Part shown: positions 4,136 to 51,384 of the stretch, one piece after another
Numbering within the stretch: position 1 is the first letter of the stretch
Layout: every line of letters begins with the position of its first letter
From: Miltoncostaea oceani
Lineage (GTDB): Bacteria > Actinomycetota > Thermoleophilia > Miltoncostaeales > Miltoncostaeaceae
Length of the DNA stretch: 64,000 nucleotides
NCBI RefSeq assembly: GCF_018141545.1
Contig: NZ_CP064357.1
Coordinates: 248,001-312,000 of the forward strand
Reading direction: 5' to 3'
Notes under the pieces: generated by a model
Database searches by the model: none
What the model saw: only the letters and a program-made list of their open reading frames with translations
What the model was told of the DNA's origin: nothing
Program-made: the position numbers and the translations under genes

Positions 4136-4141
4136 GTGACC

Positions 4142-4663
4142 GTGGATGGTCTCTCGCCTGATGGACGGCTAGTCACCCGTGCACGGGACGGCGACGCCCG
4201 GGCCGCTGATGAGCTCGCGGAGCTTCACGTACGGGCCGCGTGGCGGGCCGCTTACGCCGTCACAGGCCGCCGCGACCTCGCCGACGACGCCGTCCAGGAC
4301 GGCTTCGAGCGCGCCTTCGGGGCCCTTGACCAGTTCGACCTGTCACGACCGTTCGCCCCGTGGATCGTGCGCATCGTGGTGAACCGCGCGCTCACCCTCG
4401 TCACGCGCCCCCCGCCGTCGGTCGAGTTCGACGAGACGGTCCACGGCGTCATGGAAGACGGCGCGGAGGCGGCCCGCGAGGTGGTCGACGCGTTGATGCG
4501 GCTCGACCCCGACCGGCGGGCCGTCGTGGTGCTCCGCGTGGTGGTCGGCCTGTCCCCCGACGAGACGGCGGCGGCGCTCGGCATCCCCGTCGGCACGGTG
4601 CACTCACGTCAGCACCGCGCCCTCGCCGACCTGCGACGCGCCCTGGAGGTAACCGCCGGATGA
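4142..4663 (+). CDS. ECF-type RNA polymerase sigma factor
   Basis: A 173-residue protein with the two ECF domains. Region 2 contains DLADDAVQDGFERAF and the RPFAPWIVRIVVNRAL helix; region 4 contains LDPDRRAVVVLRVVVGL and the helix-turn-helix ETAAALGIPVGTVHSRQ, which reads the -35 element. The GTG at 4142 is preferred because of the TAGGGT box; a GTG at 4136 is the alternative. It overlaps the next gene by 4 bases (ATGA), the usual layout for a sigma factor and its membrane-bound regulator. Confidence 0.88.
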   Translation: MDGLSPDGRLVTRARDGDARAADELAELHVRAAWRAAYAVTGRRDLADDAVQDGFERAFGALDQFDLSRPFAPWIVRIVVNRALTLVTRPPPSVEFDETVHGVMEDGAEAAREVVDALMRLDPDRRAVVVLRVVVGLSPDETAAALGIPVGTVHSRQHRALADLRRALEVTAG

Positions 4664-5436
4664 GCGACGACGACCTCGAGCGCCGCATCCGCCGCTCCGT
4701 CAGGGGCGTCGAGCCCTCCGACGAGGTCATTGCGCGGGTGCGCCGGACGGCGGTGAGAGCAGCCGAGCTCGCGCGGCCCGCAGCGCGCCAGTTCCGCTCG
4801 CGCCGAGCGATCCTCTCCTACGCCCTGGCCGGGGCCGTCCTCACCGGCGGCGGGGCGACCGCCGCGGTCATGCTCTCGGGGAGCTCCGGTGCGACCGTCC
4901 CCGTGTCGCCCGAGGCCGAGGCTGCCCTCCGCGAGTCGGTCGTCGGCCGCGCCGCGTGGCTGCAACCGGGGTACCGCGGCTCCCCCCTGGTGCAGGTCGT
5001 GCCCAGGCTCCCCGCTCTGAGGTTCCCGGAGGGCACGACGTACGCGCAGGCGCTGCGGGGCCTCGTGGCGTCCGTGGGACGCGACGGCACCATGCCGCGC
5101 GGCGCCCGGCTCGCCCCGCCCCTGCCCCGCGGCGCCGTGTGGGCGCCGTCGCGCACCGGCCCGCGCCTCGACCTGACCGCGCCGTTCGGATACGGCCTGC
5201 CCCGCGGGAACATCCGAGAGCCCGACTTCCGCATCTCGGGGTCGCTGACGGCGCGCCAGGCAGAGCGGCTGGCGCGCGCCTTCATCGAAGGGCGGCTCAC
5301 CCCGCGCCAGGCCCGCGCCATCCGGCTCGGCGTCCCACGCCTGCCGGCGTGCCAGGTCCTGCCCCGCCGGGCGGCCTGCGACCTAGCGCCCCCGCCCGAG
5401 CAGGGCCCCGCCCCCGTCACGGGGGCGAAGGACTAG
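4660..5436 (+). CDS. Single-span membrane protein, likely partner of the ECF sigma factor
   Basis: A 258-residue protein with a charged cytoplasmic N-terminus of about 48 residues, one membrane span at about 49-70 (ILSYALAGAVLTGGGATAAV) and a long Pro- and Arg-rich outer part. No HxxxCxxC zinc motif is visible, so it is not a classical ZAS anti-sigma factor, but the ATGA overlap with the sigma gene and the topology suggest that it controls it. The outer part has two Cys near the C-terminus. Function is inferred from context. Confidence 0.75.
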   Translation: MSDDDLERRIRRSVRGVEPSDEVIARVRRTAVRAAELARPAARQFRSRRAILSYALAGAVLTGGGATAAVMLSGSSGATVPVSPEAEAALRESVVGRAAWLQPGYRGSPLVQVVPRLPALRFPEGTTYAQALRGLVASVGRDGTMPRGARLAPPLPRGAVWAPSRTGPRLDLTAPFGYGLPRGNIREPDFRISGSLTARQAERLARAFIEGRLTPRQARAIRLGVPRLPACQVLPRRAACDLAPPPEQGPAPVTGAKD

Positions 5437-5502: not shown

Positions 5503-6054
5503 CTAGGCCGGGAACCGGACGGCGGACGCGCCCGGCCCGATGAGGTGCCCGGTGTCGGTGCCCGGTGTCGGTGCCGGGTCGTCCGGCGCCGTGCAGAGGC
5601 TGAAGGCGAGGGTCGGCAGCGGATCGGCAAGCATCCACCTTCCGTTCTCCTCGACGAAGGAAACGGTCATCGGCGACACCTCTCCGTCGGGGCGGGTCGT
5701 CCGAAAGGTGGCGGAGGGATAGGGGTTGGTCGAGGTGGAGAGGACCCGGCCGAGCTCGAAGCGAGGCCAGCCCGGGACCTGGTCATCCGCGACCCGAAAC
5801 GCCTCGATGACGCCGAGGCGCCCGCCGCACGCGACACGGAAGGCCTCCGGCCAGAAGGTCTCGGCGTCCTCCCACCGCTGCTGGCGGTGGGCGTCGATGA
5901 AGCCGCCGAAGACGTCGGCTGCCACGGTCGGGGAGAAGGCCGGCACGACAGGTGCGGGCGCTGCATCGGCGGTCTCCGACGCCGCGGAGTCGCCCCCGCA
6001 GCCGACGACGAGAAGGGCGCCGCTGGTGAGGGCGGCGGCGAGCGCCGCCCTCAC
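5503..6054 (-). CDS. Putative lipoprotein, 183 aa
   Basis: The N-terminus is a lipoprotein signal: a short start, a hydrophobic run and the lipobox LVVGC with Cys at residue 19, followed by a Gly/Ser/Ala linker. The mature part has the feel of a small alpha+beta domain of the SnoaL/NTF2 type (FGGFIDAHRQQRWEDAETFW), a class often used for binding small ligands, but this is tentative. The C-terminal coding end contains a 13-base tandem repeat (about 5544-5569). It lies next to the two-gene secreted modules but reads away from the sigma pair. Confidence 0.75.
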   Translation of the reverse strand: MRAALAAALTSGALLVVGCGGDSAASETADAAPAPVVPAFSPTVAADVFGGFIDAHRQQRWEDAETFWPEAFRVACGGRLGVIEAFRVADDQVPGWPRFELGRVLSTSTNPYPSATFRTTRPDGEVSPMTVSFVEENGRWMLADPLPTLAFSLCTAPDDPAPTPGTDTGHLIGPGASAVRFPA

Positions 6055-6070: not shown

Positions 6071-6655
6071 CTAGCGCCCCGGGACAGTGACGGTCTCCGT
6101 GCGCGTGCCGCTCGTCAGATCGATCGAGGAGACACCGGCCGGGATCCTGGTGCTGATCACGCCCTTGGCGTCGCCTGCGATGTCGCGGCTGCCGAAGCGG
6201 ACCCGCGCGCTGCGCTGGGAGCCCGCCCCCTCCGCTCCGAGCACCCAGAGGGAGATCGAGCCGTCGGGGTTGTCGCGCCAGATCTCCTGGCCGCGGGACT
6301 TCACCGTCTCCGGCATCCCGCAGGACAGGGAGGTGCCCGGGAAGGGCTTGGTCTCCGGCGGGTCGACGACCATGAAGCACTCCATACGCCCATCCGGGGA
6401 CGGACCCAGGAAGAGCTCCTCACCCGTCGACGTTCGGCCGAGGGACTTCACCGCGTCGACGTCCACGGCGTGGCCGGCATGCGTGAGTGCGCCCTGCAGG
6501 TAGGGCGACGCCGCCTGGAGGGTCGGGGACTGCGGCGCTCCCCTGGTCTCATCCGGGCTGGCGTTCGCGGCGAAGGCGCCGAGGACGACCACGACCACGA
6601 GCCCCGCTCCCAGGCCGGCCAGTCCGAACCGTCTGCGTCTGCTGCTCATCGGCAT
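6071..6655 (-). CDS. Exported protein, second gene of secreted module A
   Basis: A 194-residue protein with a basic N-terminus and a single hydrophobic segment (about residues 10-30), so it is anchored in or exported across the membrane. The outer part carries a two-Cys motif: G-x-x-E-C-F, then about 15 residues later SCGMP. The same arrangement is found in proteins encoded at 9112, 11494 and 50812. The ATG at 6655 was chosen because the longer frame upstream only adds Arg/Thr-rich noise. It follows the small secreted protein gene by 10 bases and must be co-transcribed. Confidence 0.8.
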   Translation of the reverse strand: MPMSSRRRRFGLAGLGAGLVVVVVLGAFAANASPDETRGAPQSPTLQAASPYLQGALTHAGHAVDVDAVKSLGRTSTGEELFLGPSPDGRMECFMVVDPPETKPFPGTSLSCGMPETVKSRGQEIWRDNPDGSISLWVLGAEGAGSQRSARVRFGSRDIAGDAKGVISTRIPAGVSSIDLTSGTRTETVTVPGR

Positions 6656-6665
6656 CTGAGGCCTC

Positions 6666-7085
6666 CTATCGGACCGTCTGGCAGAACATGGTCTGCTGGC
6701 GGGGGAAGTAGTTGTCGTCGGAGTTCCGGCAGATCGCCTGGTAGCCGAAGAGCGTCGTCCCGTTGTTGTTGATCCGCTCGAACAGCAGGGCGTTCTTGCC
6801 GCCGTACCACCAGCCGAAGAGCTGGCCCTTGTAGATGGCCAGGCTCTTGCGGTACTGCGTGTAGTAGTTGGACGTCGCCCGGTGGGCATAGAAGTTGCGG
6901 ACCGAACTCCACCCCGAGGCGTTGTTCGGTGGCAGCGTGCCGACGCCGCAGTCGTTCTCGGTCACGATCACGTAGTGGCACTCGAACGTGACGGCCGCGG
7001 CGGGTTCTGCCTGGGAGAGGCTCGCGACTCCGAGCCCGCCGAAGAGGGCGAGAGCGAGAAGCATTGGTCTGAGGAACCGTGGCAC
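6666..7085 (-). CDS. Small secreted Cys-containing protein, first gene of module A
   Basis: A 139-residue protein with a signal peptide (basic start, then MLLALALFGGLGVASL, cleavage near AEPAAA). The mature part has four Cys: two near the start (C-x7-C) and two in a C-terminal CRNS...FC motif also seen in the module C protein at 8657. It is rich in Asn, Tyr and Trp, so an extracellular beta fold is likely. The GTG at 7085 has GGAGG 9 bases upstream; the longer upstream frame lacks a site and would bury the signal peptide. Function unknown. Confidence 0.8.
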   Translation of the reverse strand: MPRFLRPMLLALALFGGLGVASLSQAEPAAAVTFECHYVIVTENDCGVGTLPPNNASGWSSVRNFYAHRATSNYYTQYRKSLAIYKGQLFGWWYGGKNALLFERINNNGTTLFGYQAICRNSDDNYFPRQQTMFCQTVR

Positions 7086-7470
7086 CTTTGTCGACCTCCA
7101 TCTGAAGTCCTGCGTGGTCAAGGTTCCGATGCGAAGACCGGAGCGCCTCTCGCGGGAATCAGGGTCCAACCCCGTCATGGCCGGCGACGACCGGATCGTT
7201 ACCGATCTCGCTCGCGCCGACGATTCGCGACCTGTGTGTCCGCGCTCTACTCGCATCTCCTCTGATACGAAGGGGCTCGAAATCTCTTCCGACGATACGG
7301 CGGTTCTGGCGCTTTGAACGCGACGACGTCACTGGTCGATGCGAGTCCTGCTTGCAATTCGCCGAATCCGCTCGGCCGGGGAAGTGGACTGGCGCCCGTC
7401 CGTAGTCATGAACAGGTCGCTAGTGCGGCCCACTCAGATCACATCCATCCAGAGGAACGGAGCTCGGAAG
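7086..7470. other. Intergenic region between divergent secreted modules A and B
   Basis: I see no convincing gene in these 385 bases. They separate two divergent units of exported proteins and should hold both promoters. No clear palindromic operator was found by eye. Confidence 0.5.
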
Positions 7471-7980
7471 ATGGTCTCCCATCGATGGCGCGCGGGTCCG
7501 AGAGGGCTGTTGGTCCTCCTGGTCCTGCTCGCGATGTCCGCCGCGGCACTCGCCCCGCGGGCCGGCGCGGTGCAGGGCGTCAGCTACCCCTACTACACCT
7601 ACAACGCACGCTGCACGGGCGTCCTTGTCGCCCTCAACGAGCCGGGGGTCGGATCCTCGGGCGGTGGCTACCTGCGCACGGTGACCCAGTCGCTCAACTA
7701 CTCGGCTCCGGGCAACAACCCGTGCTACCTGACCCTCAACGTCGCGACGAACCAGATCCGCACCAACCAGGTCCTCCAGAAGCTCTCCGGGGGCTCCTGG
7801 TCCTACTGCGCGTCCACCCAGACCGGCGACTACTACAACACCTCGCCCGACTGGACCAAGACGATCTCGACCAACTACGGCGCCTCACCGCGCTGTGGCG
7901 GCGGGACCTACCGCGGCGTCGGGCGCGGCTGGGTGTCCGGTAGCGGCGGTGCCACGGCAACTCCCGGGATCGGGCTGTGA
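7471..7980 (+). CDS. Small secreted protein, first gene of module B
   Basis: A 169-residue protein with a typical signal peptide (RGLLVLLVLLAMSAAALAP, cleavage near AGA). The mature part is rich in Tyr, Ser, Asn and Gly and has four Cys. Its sequence is only distantly like the module A and C proteins, but size, composition and gene order match. The ATG at 7471 was chosen because it precedes a clean signal peptide and a GAGGAACGG site lies upstream; the frame is open further upstream without a better start. It overlaps the next gene (TGATG). No known family was recognised. Confidence 0.78.
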   Translation: MVSHRWRAGPRGLLVLLVLLAMSAAALAPRAGAVQGVSYPYYTYNARCTGVLVALNEPGVGSSGGGYLRTVTQSLNYSAPGNNPCYLTLNVATNQIRTNQVLQKLSGGSWSYCASTQTGDYYNTSPDWTKTISTNYGASPRCGGGTYRGVGRGWVSGSGGATATPGIGL

Positions 7981-8486
7981 TGCGGGTGCGAACGAGGAAC
8001 CGACCGGCGCTGATCGCGCTCGCTGTGGCCCTCAGCATCGGCCTTGGCGCAGCGGTCGCGTCCGCCGCGAGCTCGGGGGGTGGCCCCACCCAGGTGGACC
8101 CGGCCTCCCTGACCCTGCCGCCGGCGAGCGAGCGGCCCGTATGGGTGAGAGCGGACGGATCGATCGATCAGTCCCGCGCACCGCGTCAGGCTCCGGACTG
8201 GACCCGCGCCGACGGCACCGTGGACTGCTCTCGCGCGCCCCGCACAATGCCGATCTCCACCTTTGACGGCCGACTGCTGGTCGACCGGTCCGGTCGCCTG
8301 GTGCAGATGCCGTCGCTCACCGGGTGCCTTCCCGGGGAGACCCCTGAGGTGACACGGGCCTGGGCGGCCCGGGCCACGGCGCTCCAGGAGGCCGACGCGC
8401 GTCAGCGGGGTGTCCCGGTCCCGGCACCCCCGGTCGTCATCGAGACAGAGGAGCCCAGCGACCCGATCCGGGTCCCGGTGCCCTGA
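7980..8486 (+). CDS. Exported protein, second gene of module B
   Basis: A 168-residue protein with a signal peptide or N-terminal anchor (ALIALAVALSIGLGAAVASA). The mature part contains two near-repeats, WVRADGSIDQSRAPR and WTRADGTVDCSRAPR, at about residues 53-82, then a Cys and a Pro-rich tail. It does not show the G-x-x-C / SC motif of the partners in modules A and C. The ATG overlaps the stop of the previous gene by one base, so translation is coupled. Function unknown. Confidence 0.78.
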   Translation: MRVRTRNRPALIALAVALSIGLGAAVASAASSGGGPTQVDPASLTLPPASERPVWVRADGSIDQSRAPRQAPDWTRADGTVDCSRAPRTMPISTFDGRLLVDRSGRLVQMPSLTGCLPGETPEVTRAWAARATALQEADARQRGVPVPAPPVVIETEEPSDPIRVPVP

Positions 8487-8656
8487 ACCCCAAGGCGATC
8501 CGCTCACGTCGTCGGTGGCGCGCCGGCGACGTGAGGGCGCGCGCCGAGGCCGCTTCCGAGGCAGCAAAGCCAGAGGCCGGGAAGGAGCGGCGGTCGGTGG
8601 ATGTATTGACTCTCGAGACCCGCTGATCCGGCGTCCAAGCCATCCGAAGGGAAACC

Positions 8657-9076
8657 ATGAATCAGCCAGCTTCGAGCCTCATCCGGCCCCATGGGCGCCA
8701 CGCGCCGCGTGCGGCGCTCCTGCTCGGCGCAGCGACCCTGCTGGTGCTCCTTGTCGGCATGGTCGGCCGCGCTGATGCTGCCTGCTACTTCCCGTCCTCG
8801 GGCTGCAGCACCTACCACTCATGGACCGCCGGTGAGACGGCTGGGTGGTCAGCTGGGTATGGGTCGGTCTTCAACATCTTCACCAAGCAGCCGCCGGGCT
8901 CCCCAGGGCGCAGCAAGAGCCAGCGCACCAACACCGGCGGATCGATCAGCCCCTGGTACAGCGACACCTCCCTCTACCACCAGGTGAACTTCCCGAACTC
9001 GCAGACCCGCCAGATCCAGTGCCGGAACTCATCGTCGCTGTCGAACACGTTCCTCTGCGGCTACAACGGCGTCTGA
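8657..9076 (+). CDS. Small secreted Cys-containing protein, first gene of module C
   Basis: A 139-residue protein with a long basic start, a hydrophobic core (ALLLGAATLLVLLVGMV) and cleavage near ADA. The mature protein begins ACYFPSSGC and ends with CRNSSSLSNTFLCGY. The paired early Cys and the C-terminal CRNS...C are shared with the module A protein at 6666-7085, which has the same length. A GAAGGG site lies before the ATG. The stop overlaps the neighbouring frame. A secreted effector, adhesin or bacteriocin-like role is possible but not shown. Confidence 0.8.
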   Translation: MNQPASSLIRPHGRHAPRAALLLGAATLLVLLVGMVGRADAACYFPSSGCSTYHSWTAGETAGWSAGYGSVFNIFTKQPPGSPGRSKSQRTNTGGSISPWYSDTSLYHQVNFPNSQTRQIQCRNSSSLSNTFLCGYNGV

Positions 9077-9111
9077 TGGGCAGCATCGACGATTCCAAAA
9101 GGAGCCCGGGT

Positions 9112-9630
9112 ATGACCAAGCGTCTGAGGATCGCTGTGGGGGCCGCGCTCTGCGTGCTCGCCCTCAGTACGGCGGCGGTCTATGCGGCGGTCGGTGGCGA
9201 CGGTCAGGCACCTCCTCCCGCGATCGCCTCCGAGCCGGTCTTCCCGTCGGCCGCCCAGGTCGAGCCCTCCGAGACGGACCTCGTGCGTCAGGTCGGCGAC
9301 GTCCGCCTCTACGTGACCGAGGGCGCGAACGAGCGAGCGGGCTGGGTTTGCCTGATCCGGGTCGCGCCGGTCGCCACCTCGACCAGCTGCAACCCGCCCG
9401 AGGAGGCTGCCAAGCGGGGGATGGTCTCGAGCGCCCAGGACCCGAGGACGGGCGAGATCGAGCTGTGGGCCTGGTTGCCTGATGGCTTCACGACGGCCAC
9501 CTCGGCGGGTGTGAGCGACAGTGCCGTCGGCAATGTGGTGGTGCTCACCCTCCCAAAGAGCGCCGAGGTCCTGAGGGCGTCGGGTCCGGCCGGCGAGCTC
9601 GAACTCGAGGTGCCGAAAGCAGTCGGCTGA
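9112..9630 (+). CDS. Exported protein, second gene of module C
   Basis: A 172-residue protein with an N-terminal anchor (IAVGAALCVLALSTAAVYAAV). The outer part has G-W-V-C-L, then SCNPP about 12 residues later, matching the two-Cys motif of the proteins at 6071, 11494 and 50812. The ATG at 9112 has a strong AAAAGGAG site 7 bases upstream; an ATG at 9076 overlapping the previous stop is an alternative and would make a coupled start. Like its module A counterpart it probably works with the small secreted protein encoded just before it. Confidence 0.8.
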   Translation: MTKRLRIAVGAALCVLALSTAAVYAAVGGDGQAPPPAIASEPVFPSAAQVEPSETDLVRQVGDVRLYVTEGANERAGWVCLIRVAPVATSTSCNPPEEAAKRGMVSSAQDPRTGEIELWAWLPDGFTTATSAGVSDSAVGNVVVLTLPKSAEVLRASGPAGELELEVPKAVG

Positions 9631-10933: not shown

Positions 10934-11497
10934 ATGAGCACAGTGGAACCCATGGTCGACACCGCCGATGACAACGAGCGCCGCGCCTTCGAGCGCCTCT
11001 GGGACGAGAACCACCCAAGGGTCCTCGCCTACGCGCGCCGCCGGGCCCCCACATCCGAGGCGGACGATATCGCCGCCGACACCTTCCTCGTCGCCTGGCG
11101 CCGGCGCGCGCAGATGCCCCAGGATGATGAAGCCGTGCCGTGGCTCTACGGGGTCGCCCGCAAAGTCGCCGCGGACAGGCGCCGCTCCGGTGCCCGTCAG
11201 GAGCGCCTGGTCGATGCACTCGGCGCCGAACCGGGCCTCCGGGCGGACGAAGCCGCCGACAGCGGCCTGCTCGAGGCCCTCGCCGAGCTTGGGGAGAAGG
11301 ATCGCGAGGCGCTGCTGCTCATCGCCTGGGAGGGACTCAGCAGCCGCCAGGCCGCCCTCGCCATGTCCGTGTCGGAGGTCGCCTTCCGAGTCCGCGTGCA
11401 CCGCGCGCGCCGGCGGCTGGCCTCGCTGATGGAGGCCCGTCGCGCCTATGAGGAGCGCGCATACCGCCGCCCCGGCCTTGAGGGGGAGAACCAATGA
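10934..11497 (+). CDS. ECF-type RNA polymerase sigma factor
   Basis: A 187-residue sigma factor. Region 2 covers about residues 18-85 with ADDIAADTFLVAWRR and PWLYGVARKVAADRRR; region 4 covers about 110-165 with LGEKDREALLLIAWEGLSSRQAALAMSVSEVAFRVRVHRARRRL. No Shine-Dalgarno sequence precedes the ATG; CATACT lies 4 bases upstream, so the transcript may be nearly leaderless. It overlaps the membrane protein gene downstream by 4 bases (ATGA). Confidence 0.88.
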   Translation: MSTVEPMVDTADDNERRAFERLWDENHPRVLAYARRRAPTSEADDIAADTFLVAWRRRAQMPQDDEAVPWLYGVARKVAADRRRSGARQERLVDALGAEPGLRADEAADSGLLEALAELGEKDREALLLIAWEGLSSRQAALAMSVSEVAFRVRVHRARRRLASLMEARRAYEERAYRRPGLEGENQ

Positions 11498-12213
11498 ACC
11501 ACGATCCGATCATCGACGAGCTCCGCCGCATGAACCCGGTCCCGGGCCCCATCGCCGCGGCTGACAGTCATGAGCTCCGCGAGCGCACCTGGAGCCGCAT
11601 GGGTGAGGCATCCCCCGCGTCGACGGCGCCCGGCCGTCACATCCGCGCGGGCGGAGCTCGTCGGCGCGCCTTCATCCTCGCCGGGGTGATCCTCCTCGTC
11701 GCAGCTGCGATCGCCGGCGCCTCCCTGATCGCCAACGAGCTCCGCGGCCCCGCGGCCCCGGATCCAGCGGGCTTCGGCGTCGACCGCGCCGGCGCCGCCT
11801 TCCTGGGCGAACAGGAGGGGGTCCGCTACTTCCGGACGCGGTCAGGTGACTCCACCTGCCTCAGTCGCACCCTCCCCGGGACTGAGGTCGAGGGCGGACG
11901 CAGCTGCGCCCCGCCGGATCAGCTCGCCGATGCCGGTGGCCTGATCGGCGTCCAGAAGCTCGGTCCGTCGTATCTGGTCGCTGGCTTCCTGCCGCCGGGG
12001 ATCGATTCCGCCCTCGTCGCGGGGGAGCGGGTGCCGGTGCGAGAGGACGGCTTCCTCATGGCGCGCGCCGATGAGAACCCCGGGATCGCGGTGCGTGTCT
12101 ACGGCCCCGGCGTCGGTGACGCCATCGCGGCGCTGCGCGTCTACACCGAGAGTGTCATCAGCGATCCCCCGGACGGCCCGAGCTATGAGGTCCTGACGAC
12201 CCCGTGGAACTGA
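11494..12213 (+). CDS. Membrane protein with outer two-Cys domain, likely partner of the ECF sigma factor
   Basis: A 239-residue protein with a cytoplasmic N-terminus of about 50 residues, one membrane span (AFILAGVILLVAAAIAGASL) and an outer domain. The outer domain contains GDSTCLSRTLPG followed by SCAPP, the same two-Cys arrangement as in the exported proteins at 6071, 9112 and 50812. Coupling to the sigma gene suggests an anti-sigma or signal-sensing role, though no ZAS zinc motif is present. If so, the two-Cys domain may be a sensor or a ligand-binding fold reused in several exported proteins. Confidence 0.75.
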   Translation: MNHDPIIDELRRMNPVPGPIAAADSHELRERTWSRMGEASPASTAPGRHIRAGGARRRAFILAGVILLVAAAIAGASLIANELRGPAAPDPAGFGVDRAGAAFLGEQEGVRYFRTRSGDSTCLSRTLPGTEVEGGRSCAPPDQLADAGGLIGVQKLGPSYLVAGFLPPGIDSALVAGERVPVREDGFLMARADENPGIAVRVYGPGVGDAIAALRVYTESVISDPPDGPSYEVLTTPWN

Positions 12214-12333
12214 CCTCGAGGGAGGAGGCTGGACAGGCACGAGCCCACTCTCCCGCACCTCTGGCCAGTTGATCCCTGACAGAGGGAGGGGGTAGGCTCG
12301 CCGCCGTCGCAACCCCCGGGACAGGAGTTCGCC

Positions 12334-12714
12334 ATCCGCCGCCTCGCAACCGCCCCGCGCGTGCTCTCCTGCCTGGTCGCCCTTCTCGGGGCCTCGATCT
12401 TCCTCGCCGTCTCCCCGAGCGACGCGGAGGGGCACCGCGCCGTGAACTACTGGGGTGCCGACTACAAGTCGTGCGGGTCCTTCGAGACGTCCTACCACAC
12501 CCACGTCTATGCGAAGGGCATCAAGTGCCGGCTCGCGGTCCGGCTCCAGAAGGAGTACTGGAACGCGCCGGCGCGCTTCAAGGTGATCGTCAACGGCGGC
12601 TCAGGGGCCGAGGGCTACACCCGGCTGCGGCGTTTCCCGGGCTGGATCTGCCGCTCGGGCTCCGGTGGGGGCTCCTGCGCGAAGGGCAAGAGGGTTTCCG
12701 CCTACTCGAACTGA
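12334..12714 (+). CDS. Small secreted protein, possibly starting at ATC
   Basis: From 12361 (GTG) the frame gives 117 residues that begin inside a hydrophobic core with no basic start. In the same frame an ATC at 12334 lies exactly 6 bases after AGGAG and would add IRRLATAPR, giving a normal signal peptide. The mature protein has four Cys and a pattern (SCGSFETSYHTHVYAKGIKC, then a basic beta-rich end with a Cys pair) common in small actinobacterial secreted proteins of unknown role. The ATC start is inference; the GTG has no ribosome binding site. Confidence 0.7.
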   Translation: MRRLATAPRVLSCLVALLGASIFLAVSPSDAEGHRAVNYWGADYKSCGSFETSYHTHVYAKGIKCRLAVRLQKEYWNAPARFKVIVNGGSGAEGYTRLRRFPGWICRSGSGGGSCAKGKRVSAYSN

Positions 12715-46305: not shown

Positions 46306-46653
46306 ATGGCGCGCGGACGAGGATCGATCAAGAGGGCACTTGCATCACTTCGCCACGGAACGGGCGACACGGTGAGTGTTCACCGCGAGGTGATCCACGG
46401 CGCGACGATCTACGTCCGCGACGACAAGACCCTTCATCGCACCGACGGCCCGGCGGTGATCCACTCCAACGGCACCAAGGAGTGGGTCATCCACGGCAAG
46501 CTCCACCGCACTGACGGTCCGGCGCTCGAGCGTCCCGTCGGTGAGAGCGAGTACTGGCTGAACGGGGTCCGCGTCAGCGCCGAGGAGTGGGAGCGGATGC
46601 GCCGCCATGTCGAGGTGGTGCGCTCTACCGTGCCGAGCGGCCCACCCGCCTGA
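46306..46653 (+). CDS. RTDGPA-repeat protein with M-A-R-G-R tag, 115 aa
   Basis: After MARGRGSIKRALAS the protein contains two copies of the LHRTDGPA motif (DKTLHRTDGPAVIHSNGTKE and GKLHRTDGPALERP) and an ending YWLNGVRVS. This MORN-like short repeat is frequent in phages, plasmids and large DNA viruses, where its role is unknown. It should fold as a small beta sheet. It appears leaderless. Confidence 0.8.
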   Translation: MARGRGSIKRALASLRHGTGDTVSVHREVIHGATIYVRDDKTLHRTDGPAVIHSNGTKEWVIHGKLHRTDGPALERPVGESEYWLNGVRVSAEEWERMRRHVEVVRSTVPSGPPA

Positions 46654-48848: not shown

Positions 48849-50066
48849 ATGGCGAGAGGTAGATCACACGGCACCACAGGGCGCCCGAGGCACTCCGGAC
48901 CGGCGCTCGATCCCGGTGAGGGACTGGCGCGGCTCATGCGTGGAGCCGTGGACTGCCTGCCTGTGGGGGACCTCGAGCGAAAGCTCGCCCTCGGCCGGCC
49001 GCTGCGGGTCAAGTTCGGGGTCGACCCGACGGCGCCCGACATCCACCTCGGGCACACCGTCCCGCTGCTGAAGCTCCGCGAGTTCCAGGACCAGGGGCAC
49101 ACGGTGGTCCTGATCATCGGCGACTGGACCGCCCGCGTCGGTGACCCGAGCGGCCGGAGCGCGACGCGCCCGCTCATCGACCCCGAGGCCGTCGAGCACA
49201 ACGCTGCCACCTACGCCGACCAGGCCTTCCGGATCCTCGATCCCGAACGCACCGAGGTCCGACGCAACGGCGAGTGGTTCGCCCAGATGGGGCTGTCCGA
49301 GGTCTTCCGGCTCGCCGGCTCGGCGACGGTGAACCAGATCCTCCACCGTAAGGACTTCGCTGAGCGCCTGAAGCGCCAGCAGCCGGTGTCGATGCTCGAG
49401 ATGCTCTACCCGCTGATGCAGGCCTACGACTCAGTGCGGGTCGGATCGGATGTCGAGATCGGAGGGACCGATCAGCTGTTCAACCTGATGATGGCCCGTG
49501 ACCTCCAGGGGCAGTTCGGCGCCGCGGACTCCCAATCGGTCCTGACCATGCCGTTGTTGGTCGGCGTGGACGGCGCTGCGAAGATGAGCAAGTCCCTCGG
49601 GAACCAGATCGGCGTCACCGACGCGCCCGAGGAGCAGTTCGGCCGGGTCATGCGACTCCCGGATGAGGCGATGCCGAGCTGGTTCGAGATTCTCGCCCCC
49701 GACGTCGCGATGCCACCTGACCCCTTGCACGCCAAGCGCGAGCTCGCCCGGTTGATCGTCGCTCGCAGCCACGGTCAGCCGGCGGCGACCGAGGCCCAGT
49801 CGAAGTTCGACCACACGGTCAGCCGGGGGGAGGTCCCCGAGGACGCTCCCTCACTCGTCATGGCAGAGCGCAGAGGTGAGGTGCACCTGCCCGCCCTGAT
49901 CACCGAGCACCTCGGTGTCGCCTCCCGCAACGAGGCGCGCCGCCTGATCGGATCCGGCGCGGTAAGCGTCGACGGCCGCAGGCTCACCGACCTCGACGTC
50001 CCGGCGGCGGACCTGATCGGCGGAACGCTCCGGGTCGGGCGCCGGCGCTACCTGCGCATCGCCTGA
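48849..50066 (+). CDS. tyrS: Tyrosyl-tRNA synthetase with M-A-R-G-R tag
   Basis: A 405-residue class I aminoacyl-tRNA synthetase. HLGH (66-69) is the HIGH motif and KMSKS (245-249) the second signature; the tyrosine pocket has GGTDQLFNLMMARDLQ. The C-terminal 65 residues form an S4 RNA-binding domain (LGVASRNEARRLIGSGAVSV). The first 25 residues, MARGRSHGTTGRPRHSG and beyond, are a basic extension not needed in the family and similar to neighbouring accessory proteins. TACGGT ends 8 bases before the ATG. It overlaps the next gene by one base. Confidence 0.95.
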   Translation: MARGRSHGTTGRPRHSGPALDPGEGLARLMRGAVDCLPVGDLERKLALGRPLRVKFGVDPTAPDIHLGHTVPLLKLREFQDQGHTVVLIIGDWTARVGDPSGRSATRPLIDPEAVEHNAATYADQAFRILDPERTEVRRNGEWFAQMGLSEVFRLAGSATVNQILHRKDFAERLKRQQPVSMLEMLYPLMQAYDSVRVGSDVEIGGTDQLFNLMMARDLQGQFGAADSQSVLTMPLLVGVDGAAKMSKSLGNQIGVTDAPEEQFGRVMRLPDEAMPSWFEILAPDVAMPPDPLHAKRELARLIVARSHGQPAATEAQSKFDHTVSRGEVPEDAPSLVMAERRGEVHLPALITEHLGVASRNEARRLIGSGAVSVDGRRLTDLDVPAADLIGGTLRVGRRRYLRIA

Positions 50067-50811: not shown

Positions 50812-51384
50812 CTATGGCTGGCGTGTGAACGCCTCGAGCGGGATGGACTGGGTCCGGTCCGCTCCGGAGAGGGTCAGGGCAATGTCGGCGCGGTCGACGT
50901 CCAGTTGAGCGACGTTGTTGATGATCGTGACGCTTCGCCCGCCGGCCGCCGCCGTGTCGAAGCCGTCGGGGGCGAGCACGGTGACGCGGGCCGCCCGCGA
51001 TCCGTTCAACGAGCCGAGAGGGATGACACCGCCCGTGGGGATGGCCCTCGGATCCGGGCACGTGCTCCGGACCCCGTCCTCCTCGACCACGGCGAGGCAC
51101 AGCCTGCCCTCGACGCCTTCGCCGGCGAAGATCGGTCCGGCGGGTGTCGTGGTGGCCAGCCGGAGGCTCTCAAGGATGAGGTTCGACACTTCGGGGTCAG
51201 TGATTCCGAGAAGGGGCGTACCTCGCAGATCCGCCGCCGGGCCCTCCAGTACGCCGTAGGAGATCCCGCTGGCGCTCGAGCTGGAATCATCGCCGCTGAC
51301 GAGGACCGCCGAGACGATCACCGCGAGGGTCACAAGCGCGCCGACGGTGAGGTAGAAGAAGCTGGTTCTTGTGTCCGTCGGCAT
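50812..51384 (-). CDS. Membrane-anchored protein with two-Cys domain, 190 aa
   Basis: An N-terminal anchor (FFYLTVGALVTLAVIVSAVLV) follows the ATG, which has GAGG upstream. The outer part contains EGRLCLAVVEEDGVRSTCPDP, the same G-x-x-C-L ... TC/SC-x-x-P arrangement as in the proteins at 6071, 9112 and 11494, then Ser/Thr-rich beta strands. It is divergent from the subtilase-like gene, with a CRP-like palindrome in the gap. Function unknown. Confidence 0.75.
   Translation of the reverse strand: MPTDTRTSFFYLTVGALVTLAVIVSAVLVSGDDSSSSASGISYGVLEGPAADLRGTPLLGITDPEVSNLILESLRLATTTPAGPIFAGEGVEGRLCLAVVEEDGVRSTCPDPRAIPTGGVIPLGSLNGSRAARVTVLAPDGFDTAAAGGRSVTIINNVAQLDVDRADIALTLSGADRTQSIPLEAFTRQP

What the first reader, a model, noticed from the sequence alone, without database searches (positions are those of the whole stretch)
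6071..9630. Three two-gene modules of a small secreted protein plus an exported partner
Modules A (7085 to 6071, minus), B (7471-8486) and C (8657-9630) each pair a small signal-peptide protein (139-169 aa) with a second exported protein, with gaps of 10 bases or overlaps. The first proteins of A and C are the same length and share two early Cys and a C-terminal CRNS...C motif, although their overall sequence differs. Repeated, diversified pairs suggest an arms-race or adhesion system, for example a secreted effector with a protector or carrier.
Basis: partly seen in the sequence, partly recalled or inferred. Interest (0 to 1): 0.6.

Follow-up and report, generated by a model that had tools for sequence, protein, structure and literature searches.

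The report
Secreted protein with membrane-anchored partner pairs
Two of the three neighbouring gene pairs belong to an undescribed, recurring bacterial module in which a fast-changing small secreted protein is made next to a membrane-tethered protein of one conserved family, probably its dedicated surface binder; the third pair only looks similar.

Summary
Modules A (A1/A2, 7085-6071 minus) and C (C1/C2, 8657-9630) belong to a real two-gene module; module B (7471-8486) does not. The second proteins A2 and C2 share an unnamed membrane-anchored ectodomain ("C2 domain" here). It has an invariant Cys pair and a confident two-part, mostly beta AlphaFold model, but no Pfam, NCBIfam, PADLOC or significant PDB match. 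Profile searches found it in 28 of 329 genomes of the class, both as short single-TM proteins and as the outer part of ECF-linked anti-sigma-like proteins. A small secreted Cys protein lies just upstream of 16 of 28 standalone copies, against 29 of 506 control genes. Both genes of an orthologous pair are under purifying selection. Twelve copies lack a recognised secreted gene, and one has only a truncated one. I think the partner is a surface-bound cognate binder (immunity or decoy receptor) of the secreted protein, with the same ectodomain used as a sensor on anti-sigma factors. Binding and function are inferred.

The parts
6666..7085 (-). A1: small secreted protein, 139 aa, signal peptide, 4 mature Cys, C-terminal CRNS...C
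   Evidence: joins the C1 family by Cys pattern, C.N..C motif and partner. Profile without A1 hits it only at E=0.08, rank 7 of 5,639 ORFs
6681..6731 (-). C-terminal C.N...C motif of A1 (CRNSDDNYFPRQQTMFC)
6071..6649 (-). A2: single-TM protein with the C2-domain ectodomain, partner of A1
   Evidence: E 1e-26, but A2 is in the profile. A2 by itself finds no convincing match elsewhere, so its place rests on the alignment
5503..6054 (-). A3: lipoprotein-like 183 aa gene (lipobox LVVGC), 16 bases after A2, probably same operon
   Evidence: no Pfam match
8657..9076 (+). C1: small secreted protein, 139 aa, 4 mature Cys (CYFPSSGC ... CRNSSSLSNTFLC)
   Evidence: Homologue with partner in G010 (E 5.7e-5), G012 and G037
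9020..9058 (+). C-terminal C.N...C motif of C1
9112..9630 (+). C2: single-TM protein with conserved ectodomain, partner of C1
   Evidence: AlphaFold2 pLDDT 87.6, pTM 0.74
7471..7980 (+). B1: secreted 169 aa protein; lookalike, not shown to belong to the module
   Evidence: No relatives; no C.N..C motif
7980..8486 (+). B2: exported or single-TM protein of a different family
   Evidence: 45% identical paralogue at G000:C2:630866-631348 without a B1-like neighbour
10934..11497 (+). ECF sigma factor gene
   Evidence: Pfam Sigma70_r2 and Sigma70_r4_2
11494..12213 (+). Anti-sigma-like membrane protein whose ectodomain is the same C2 domain
   Evidence: E 1.1e-23; it is one of the profile's rows
12361..12714 (+). 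D1: small secreted Cys protein right after the ECF/anti-sigma pair
   Evidence: no relatives
50812..51384 (-). Orphan standalone C2-domain protein without a secreted neighbour

Best explanation
A1/A2 and C1/C2 are two copies of a recurring two-gene module. Gene 1 encodes a small Sec-exported, disulfide-containing, aromatic- and Asn-rich protein that is released. Gene 2 encodes a protein held in the membrane by one N-terminal TM helix, which displays a conserved two-part, mostly beta ectodomain. I think the ectodomain binds the co-encoded secreted protein at the producer's own surface and neutralises or captures it (immunity or decoy receptor). The same ectodomain fused to anti-sigma-like proteins next to ECF sigma factors would then sense such proteins and switch on a response. 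Shown: pair conservation, one partner family, its sharing with ECF anti-sigma-like proteins, orphan partners and one decayed first gene. Inferred: export, binding, neutralisation and sensing.
For: The C1 and C2 homologues in G010 were found by two independent searches and lie side by side. Further pairs occur in G012, G037, G005, G073, G168, G322, G145, G319, G273, G267 and elsewhere in the own genome. Secreted Cys gene upstream of 16/28 standalone partners against 29/506 genes (Fisher p 6e-12) or 11/79 single-TM genes (p 2e-5). Shared C.N..C motif. Both genes under purifying selection in G073/G168. Orphan partners and a truncated first gene with an intact partner in G012:C35. G267 locus: ECF sigma - anti-sigma with C2 domain - secreted gene - standalone C2 domain in a row, the two C2 domains being sisters at 100/100. 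Precedent: the anti-sigma factor RsiV directly binds lysozyme (PMC9044953); orphan immunity genes are a known sign of effector-immunity systems (PMC12483513).
Against: No toxicity or binding data. No known toxin fold or catalytic motif was found, and the structure model of the secreted protein failed (pLDDT 39). No positive selection in the one testable orthologous pair. The partner tree is too poorly resolved to show co-evolution of partner and secreted type. Orphan partners could equally be receptors for ligands encoded elsewhere.
Confidence: 0.4

Rival explanations
1. Ligand-receptor signalling: the secreted protein is an autocrine or paracrine signal; C2-domain anti-sigma proteins are its receptors and standalone C2-domain proteins tune or sequester it. 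No killing is involved.
For: The same ectodomain sits on ECF-linked anti-sigma-like proteins in this window and in G009, G010, G020, G267, G271 and G183; the four-gene array in G267.
Against: The usual partner (about 195 aa) has almost no cytoplasmic part, so it cannot signal itself; most pairs are not beside an ECF gene.
Confidence: 0.27
2. Surface assembly: the membrane-anchored partner is the anchor, carrier or folding helper for an aromatic- and Asn-rich secreted protein that acts as an adhesin or matrix component.
For: Secreted proteins average 16.5% W+Y+F and 6.9% N, against 6.1% and 1.8% for window proteins; strict gene order, short gaps.
Against: Does not explain orphan partners or the shared anti-sigma ectodomain.
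Confidence: 0.2
3. The adjacency is incidental: both kinds of gene are common orphan exported genes and the partner domain is a generic stress-sensing ectodomain.
For: First proteins are too divergent for significant pairwise matches in many cases, and 12 of 28 standalone partners lack such a neighbour.
Against: About tenfold enrichment over control genes, C1-C2 co-conservation in several genera, orthologous pairs with both genes under purifying selection.
Confidence: 0.08

Closest known systems
Bacteriocin or effector with cognate immunity protein
   Same: Small exported protein encoded just before a membrane-attached partner; several diverged pairs per genome; orphan partners
   Different: No known toxin or immunity family matches; activity and neutralisation not tested
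RsiV, the lysozyme-binding anti-sigma factor
   Same: A membrane-anchored ectodomain of an ECF anti-sigma-like protein is proposed to bind a small disulfide-containing extracellular protein
   Different: No sequence match to any Pfam family; here the standalone partners lack the anti-sigma part and the putative ligand is encoded next door
Lactococcin 972-type bacteriocins
   Same: Small Sec-exported, aromatic-rich, mainly beta-like proteins (recalled, not tested structurally)
   Different: No Pfam or NCBIfam hit; members here carry two probable disulfides

Membership tests
Secreted C.N..C protein + C2-domain partner module (defined here) | Second gene encodes a single-TM protein with the C2-domain ectodomain and its invariant Cys pair | tested here: met
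   A2 and C2 yes; both are rows of the profile. B2 shows none of it and is not among the hits
Secreted C.N..C protein + C2-domain partner module (defined here) | First gene encodes a signal-peptide protein with an early Cys pair and terminal C.N..C | tested here: met
   A1 and C1 met; B1 not met
Bacteriocin/effector-immunity pair | Known toxin or immunity domain | tested here: not met
   Pfam, NCBIfam and PADLOC: no credible hit
Bacteriocin/effector-immunity pair | Adjacent cognate partner, with orphan partners elsewhere | tested here: met
   Adjacency and orphan copies only; cognate binding not tested
Bacteriocin/effector-immunity pair | First protein inhibits cells and second neutralises it | not testable with these tools
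   Needs an experiment
ECF anti-sigma factor with protein-sensing ectodomain (RsiV-like) | Cytoplasmic sigma-binding part and adjacent ECF gene | tested here: not met
   A2 and C2 have only a short cytoplasmic N-terminus; window 11494-12213 does have a longer N-terminal part and an adjacent ECF gene
ECF anti-sigma factor with protein-sensing ectodomain (RsiV-like) | RsiV ectodomain family | tested here: not met
   No credible Pfam match in 28 members; no significant PDB fold match
Lactococcin 972 bacteriocin family | Match to the family model | tested here: not met
   No Pfam or NCBIfam hit for A1, B1, C1; no such hit for the A7 members in Pfam

The most novel reading that the evidence does not exclude
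A class-wide, undescribed protein-recognition system: one ectodomain family that recognises many unrelated-looking small secreted proteins, used both as a membrane-tethered immunity or decoy protein and as the sensor of ECF anti-sigma factors.
Probability: 0.3. Interest if true: 0.8.

Novelty: new variant of a known kind. Interest (0 to 1): 0.58.

Why it matters
If right, it gives a poorly studied bacterial class its own recurring system of secreted proteins with cognate surface partners, adds a domain family missing from Pfam, NCBIfam and PADLOC, and links secreted-protein recognition to ECF sigma regulation. The conserved partner is a bait for finding secreted proteins that cannot be found by their own sequence.

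Tried and rejected
B as a third copy: rejected. Pfam, NCBIfam, PADLOC and PDB sequence searches: nothing credible. Fold searches of the C2 domain: no E-value below 0.001 in PDB or the viral library; the best local match, a PUR repeat over 43 residues, is taken as chance. AlphaFold of C1: unusable. GTDB contig scan for A1: none. Naming the organism through TyrS: unresolved. Shared ECF-type promoter upstream of A1, B1, C1, D1: none seen. Weak C1-profile hits in G035, G041 and G044: noise. Tree test of partner type against secreted type: unresolved.

Full report
What is there. The window is part of a 4.54 Mb, three-contig genome, 70.5% G+C over the window. The six genes exist as described and score as coding in a codon model. 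A1 and C1 are both 139 aa with a signal peptide, an early Cys pair and a terminal CRNS...C. A2, B2 and C2 have one N-terminal hydrophobic segment. A third, lipoprotein-like gene (5503-6054) follows A2 at 16 bases. None of these has a credible Pfam or NCBIfam match.

The pair in other genomes. C1 alone finds one relative worth noting in its family, in G010 (E 5.7e-5). C2 alone finds a match in the same G010 contig a few hundred bases downstream (E 4.8e-4), in the same order and orientation. There the two lie in one open frame, with a ribosome-binding-like AGGAGG and ATGATG before the second part. A profile of the second protein then led to neighbours that sequence search with C1 had missed. G012:C59 carries CYF..GC ... 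C....C directly before the partner. G037:C9 carries WCSFP ... C.N......C before the partner. G012:C35 has an intact partner behind a truncated first gene. A profile of four such proteins without A1 puts A1 at only E 0.08, rank 7 of 5,639 ORFs. A1's membership therefore rests on Cys pattern, motif and partner, and A2's on the alignment, since A2 alone found no convincing match.

How widespread. A 13-sequence partner profile matched 28 of 329 class genomes at E<=0.001. Some hits are long ECF-linked proteins, others short single-TM proteins. Of 28 standalone copies, 16 have a small signal-peptide protein with at least two mature Cys ending within 200 bases upstream, against 29 of 506 control genes and 11 of 79 single-TM genes (Fisher p 6e-12 and 2e-5). 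One of the 16 (second G010 copy) counts its neighbouring partner gene, while the true G010 pair is missed because the frame is fused, so the total is unchanged. Leaving out A2, C2 and both G010 copies gives 13 of 24. The first proteins fall into several types. Eight of 15 share the terminal C.N(5-13)C motif, which is in 12 of 5,458 background ORFs, members included. They are rich in aromatics and Asn.

Selection. In the orthologous pair of G073 and G168 both genes have dN/dS well below 1 (0.19 and 0.16) at 75% and 72% identity. Both are real genes under constraint; there is no sign of overall positive selection in this pair.

The partner domain. A 28-row alignment has two invariant Cys. AlphaFold2 gives mean pLDDT 87.6 and pTM 0.74, with strands and one short helix in the order EEEEHE followed by six strands. 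No PDB or viral structure matches at E<=0.001. The same domain forms the outer part of an anti-sigma-like protein in this window (11494-12213), next to an ECF sigma gene and followed by a secreted Cys protein. In G267 one stretch holds an ECF gene, an anti-sigma-like protein with this domain, a secreted Cys gene and a standalone partner; the two domains there are sisters at 100/100. Otherwise the tree is largely unresolved.

Module B. B1 has no convincing relatives in 249 class genomes (two weak hits, at E 8e-4 and 0.007, do not read as such genes) or in plasmids. B2 has a 45% identical paralogue in the own genome whose upstream neighbour is a multi-TM protein, not a B1-like gene. B2 lacks the partner domain. 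B is a lookalike.

Mechanism. The conserved part is the surface-tethered partner and the variable part is the secreted protein. Partners occur without a secreted gene; with the C1-family profiles I found no secreted gene without a partner, though most known members were found through the partner, so this is biased. That asymmetry, the multiple pairs per genome and the sharing of the ectodomain with anti-sigma proteins fit a cognate binder acting as immunity or decoy, with a sensor version. RsiV, an anti-sigma factor that directly binds lysozyme (PMC9044953), is a precedent for the sensing half; orphan immunity genes (PMC12483513) for the other. Signalling without antagonism and surface assembly remain open. 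No binding, export or activity was tested.

Limits. Genomes in the class set are unnamed and many are incomplete MAGs. The gene caller and signal-peptide test are simple scripts of mine, trained on this window. The organism was not identified.

Noticed in passing
window 10934-12714: ECF sigma gene, anti-sigma-like protein with the same C2-domain ectodomain, then a small secreted Cys protein (D1): a related arrangement close to the finding.
   Followed up: partly
window 4136-5436: A second ECF sigma gene with a membrane protein overlapping it by four bases; its outer part does not look like the C2 domain.
   Followed up: no
window 50812-51384: Orphan standalone C2-domain protein without a secreted neighbour.
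   Followed up: partly
L188 3549-6023: ECF sigma, anti-sigma-like C2-domain protein, secreted Cys protein and standalone C2-domain protein in one row (G267).
   Followed up: yes
L039 8924-9889: C1-like and C2-like parts in one open frame in G010, with an internal ribosome-binding-like site; real fusion, readthrough or assembly error not decided. A second partner copy and a tRNA-Ala lie nearby.
   Followed up: partly
L119 5432-7735: Two C2-domain genes about 1.1 kb apart in the own genome, without recognisable secreted genes, near a tRNA-Met.
   Followed up: partly
window 46390-46653: Small protein with repeated LHRTDGPA-type units.
   Followed up: no
window 48936-50066: TyrS-like protein whose nearest named hits are 43-49% identical and spread over several phyla; no close relative found with the patterns used.
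   Followed up: no
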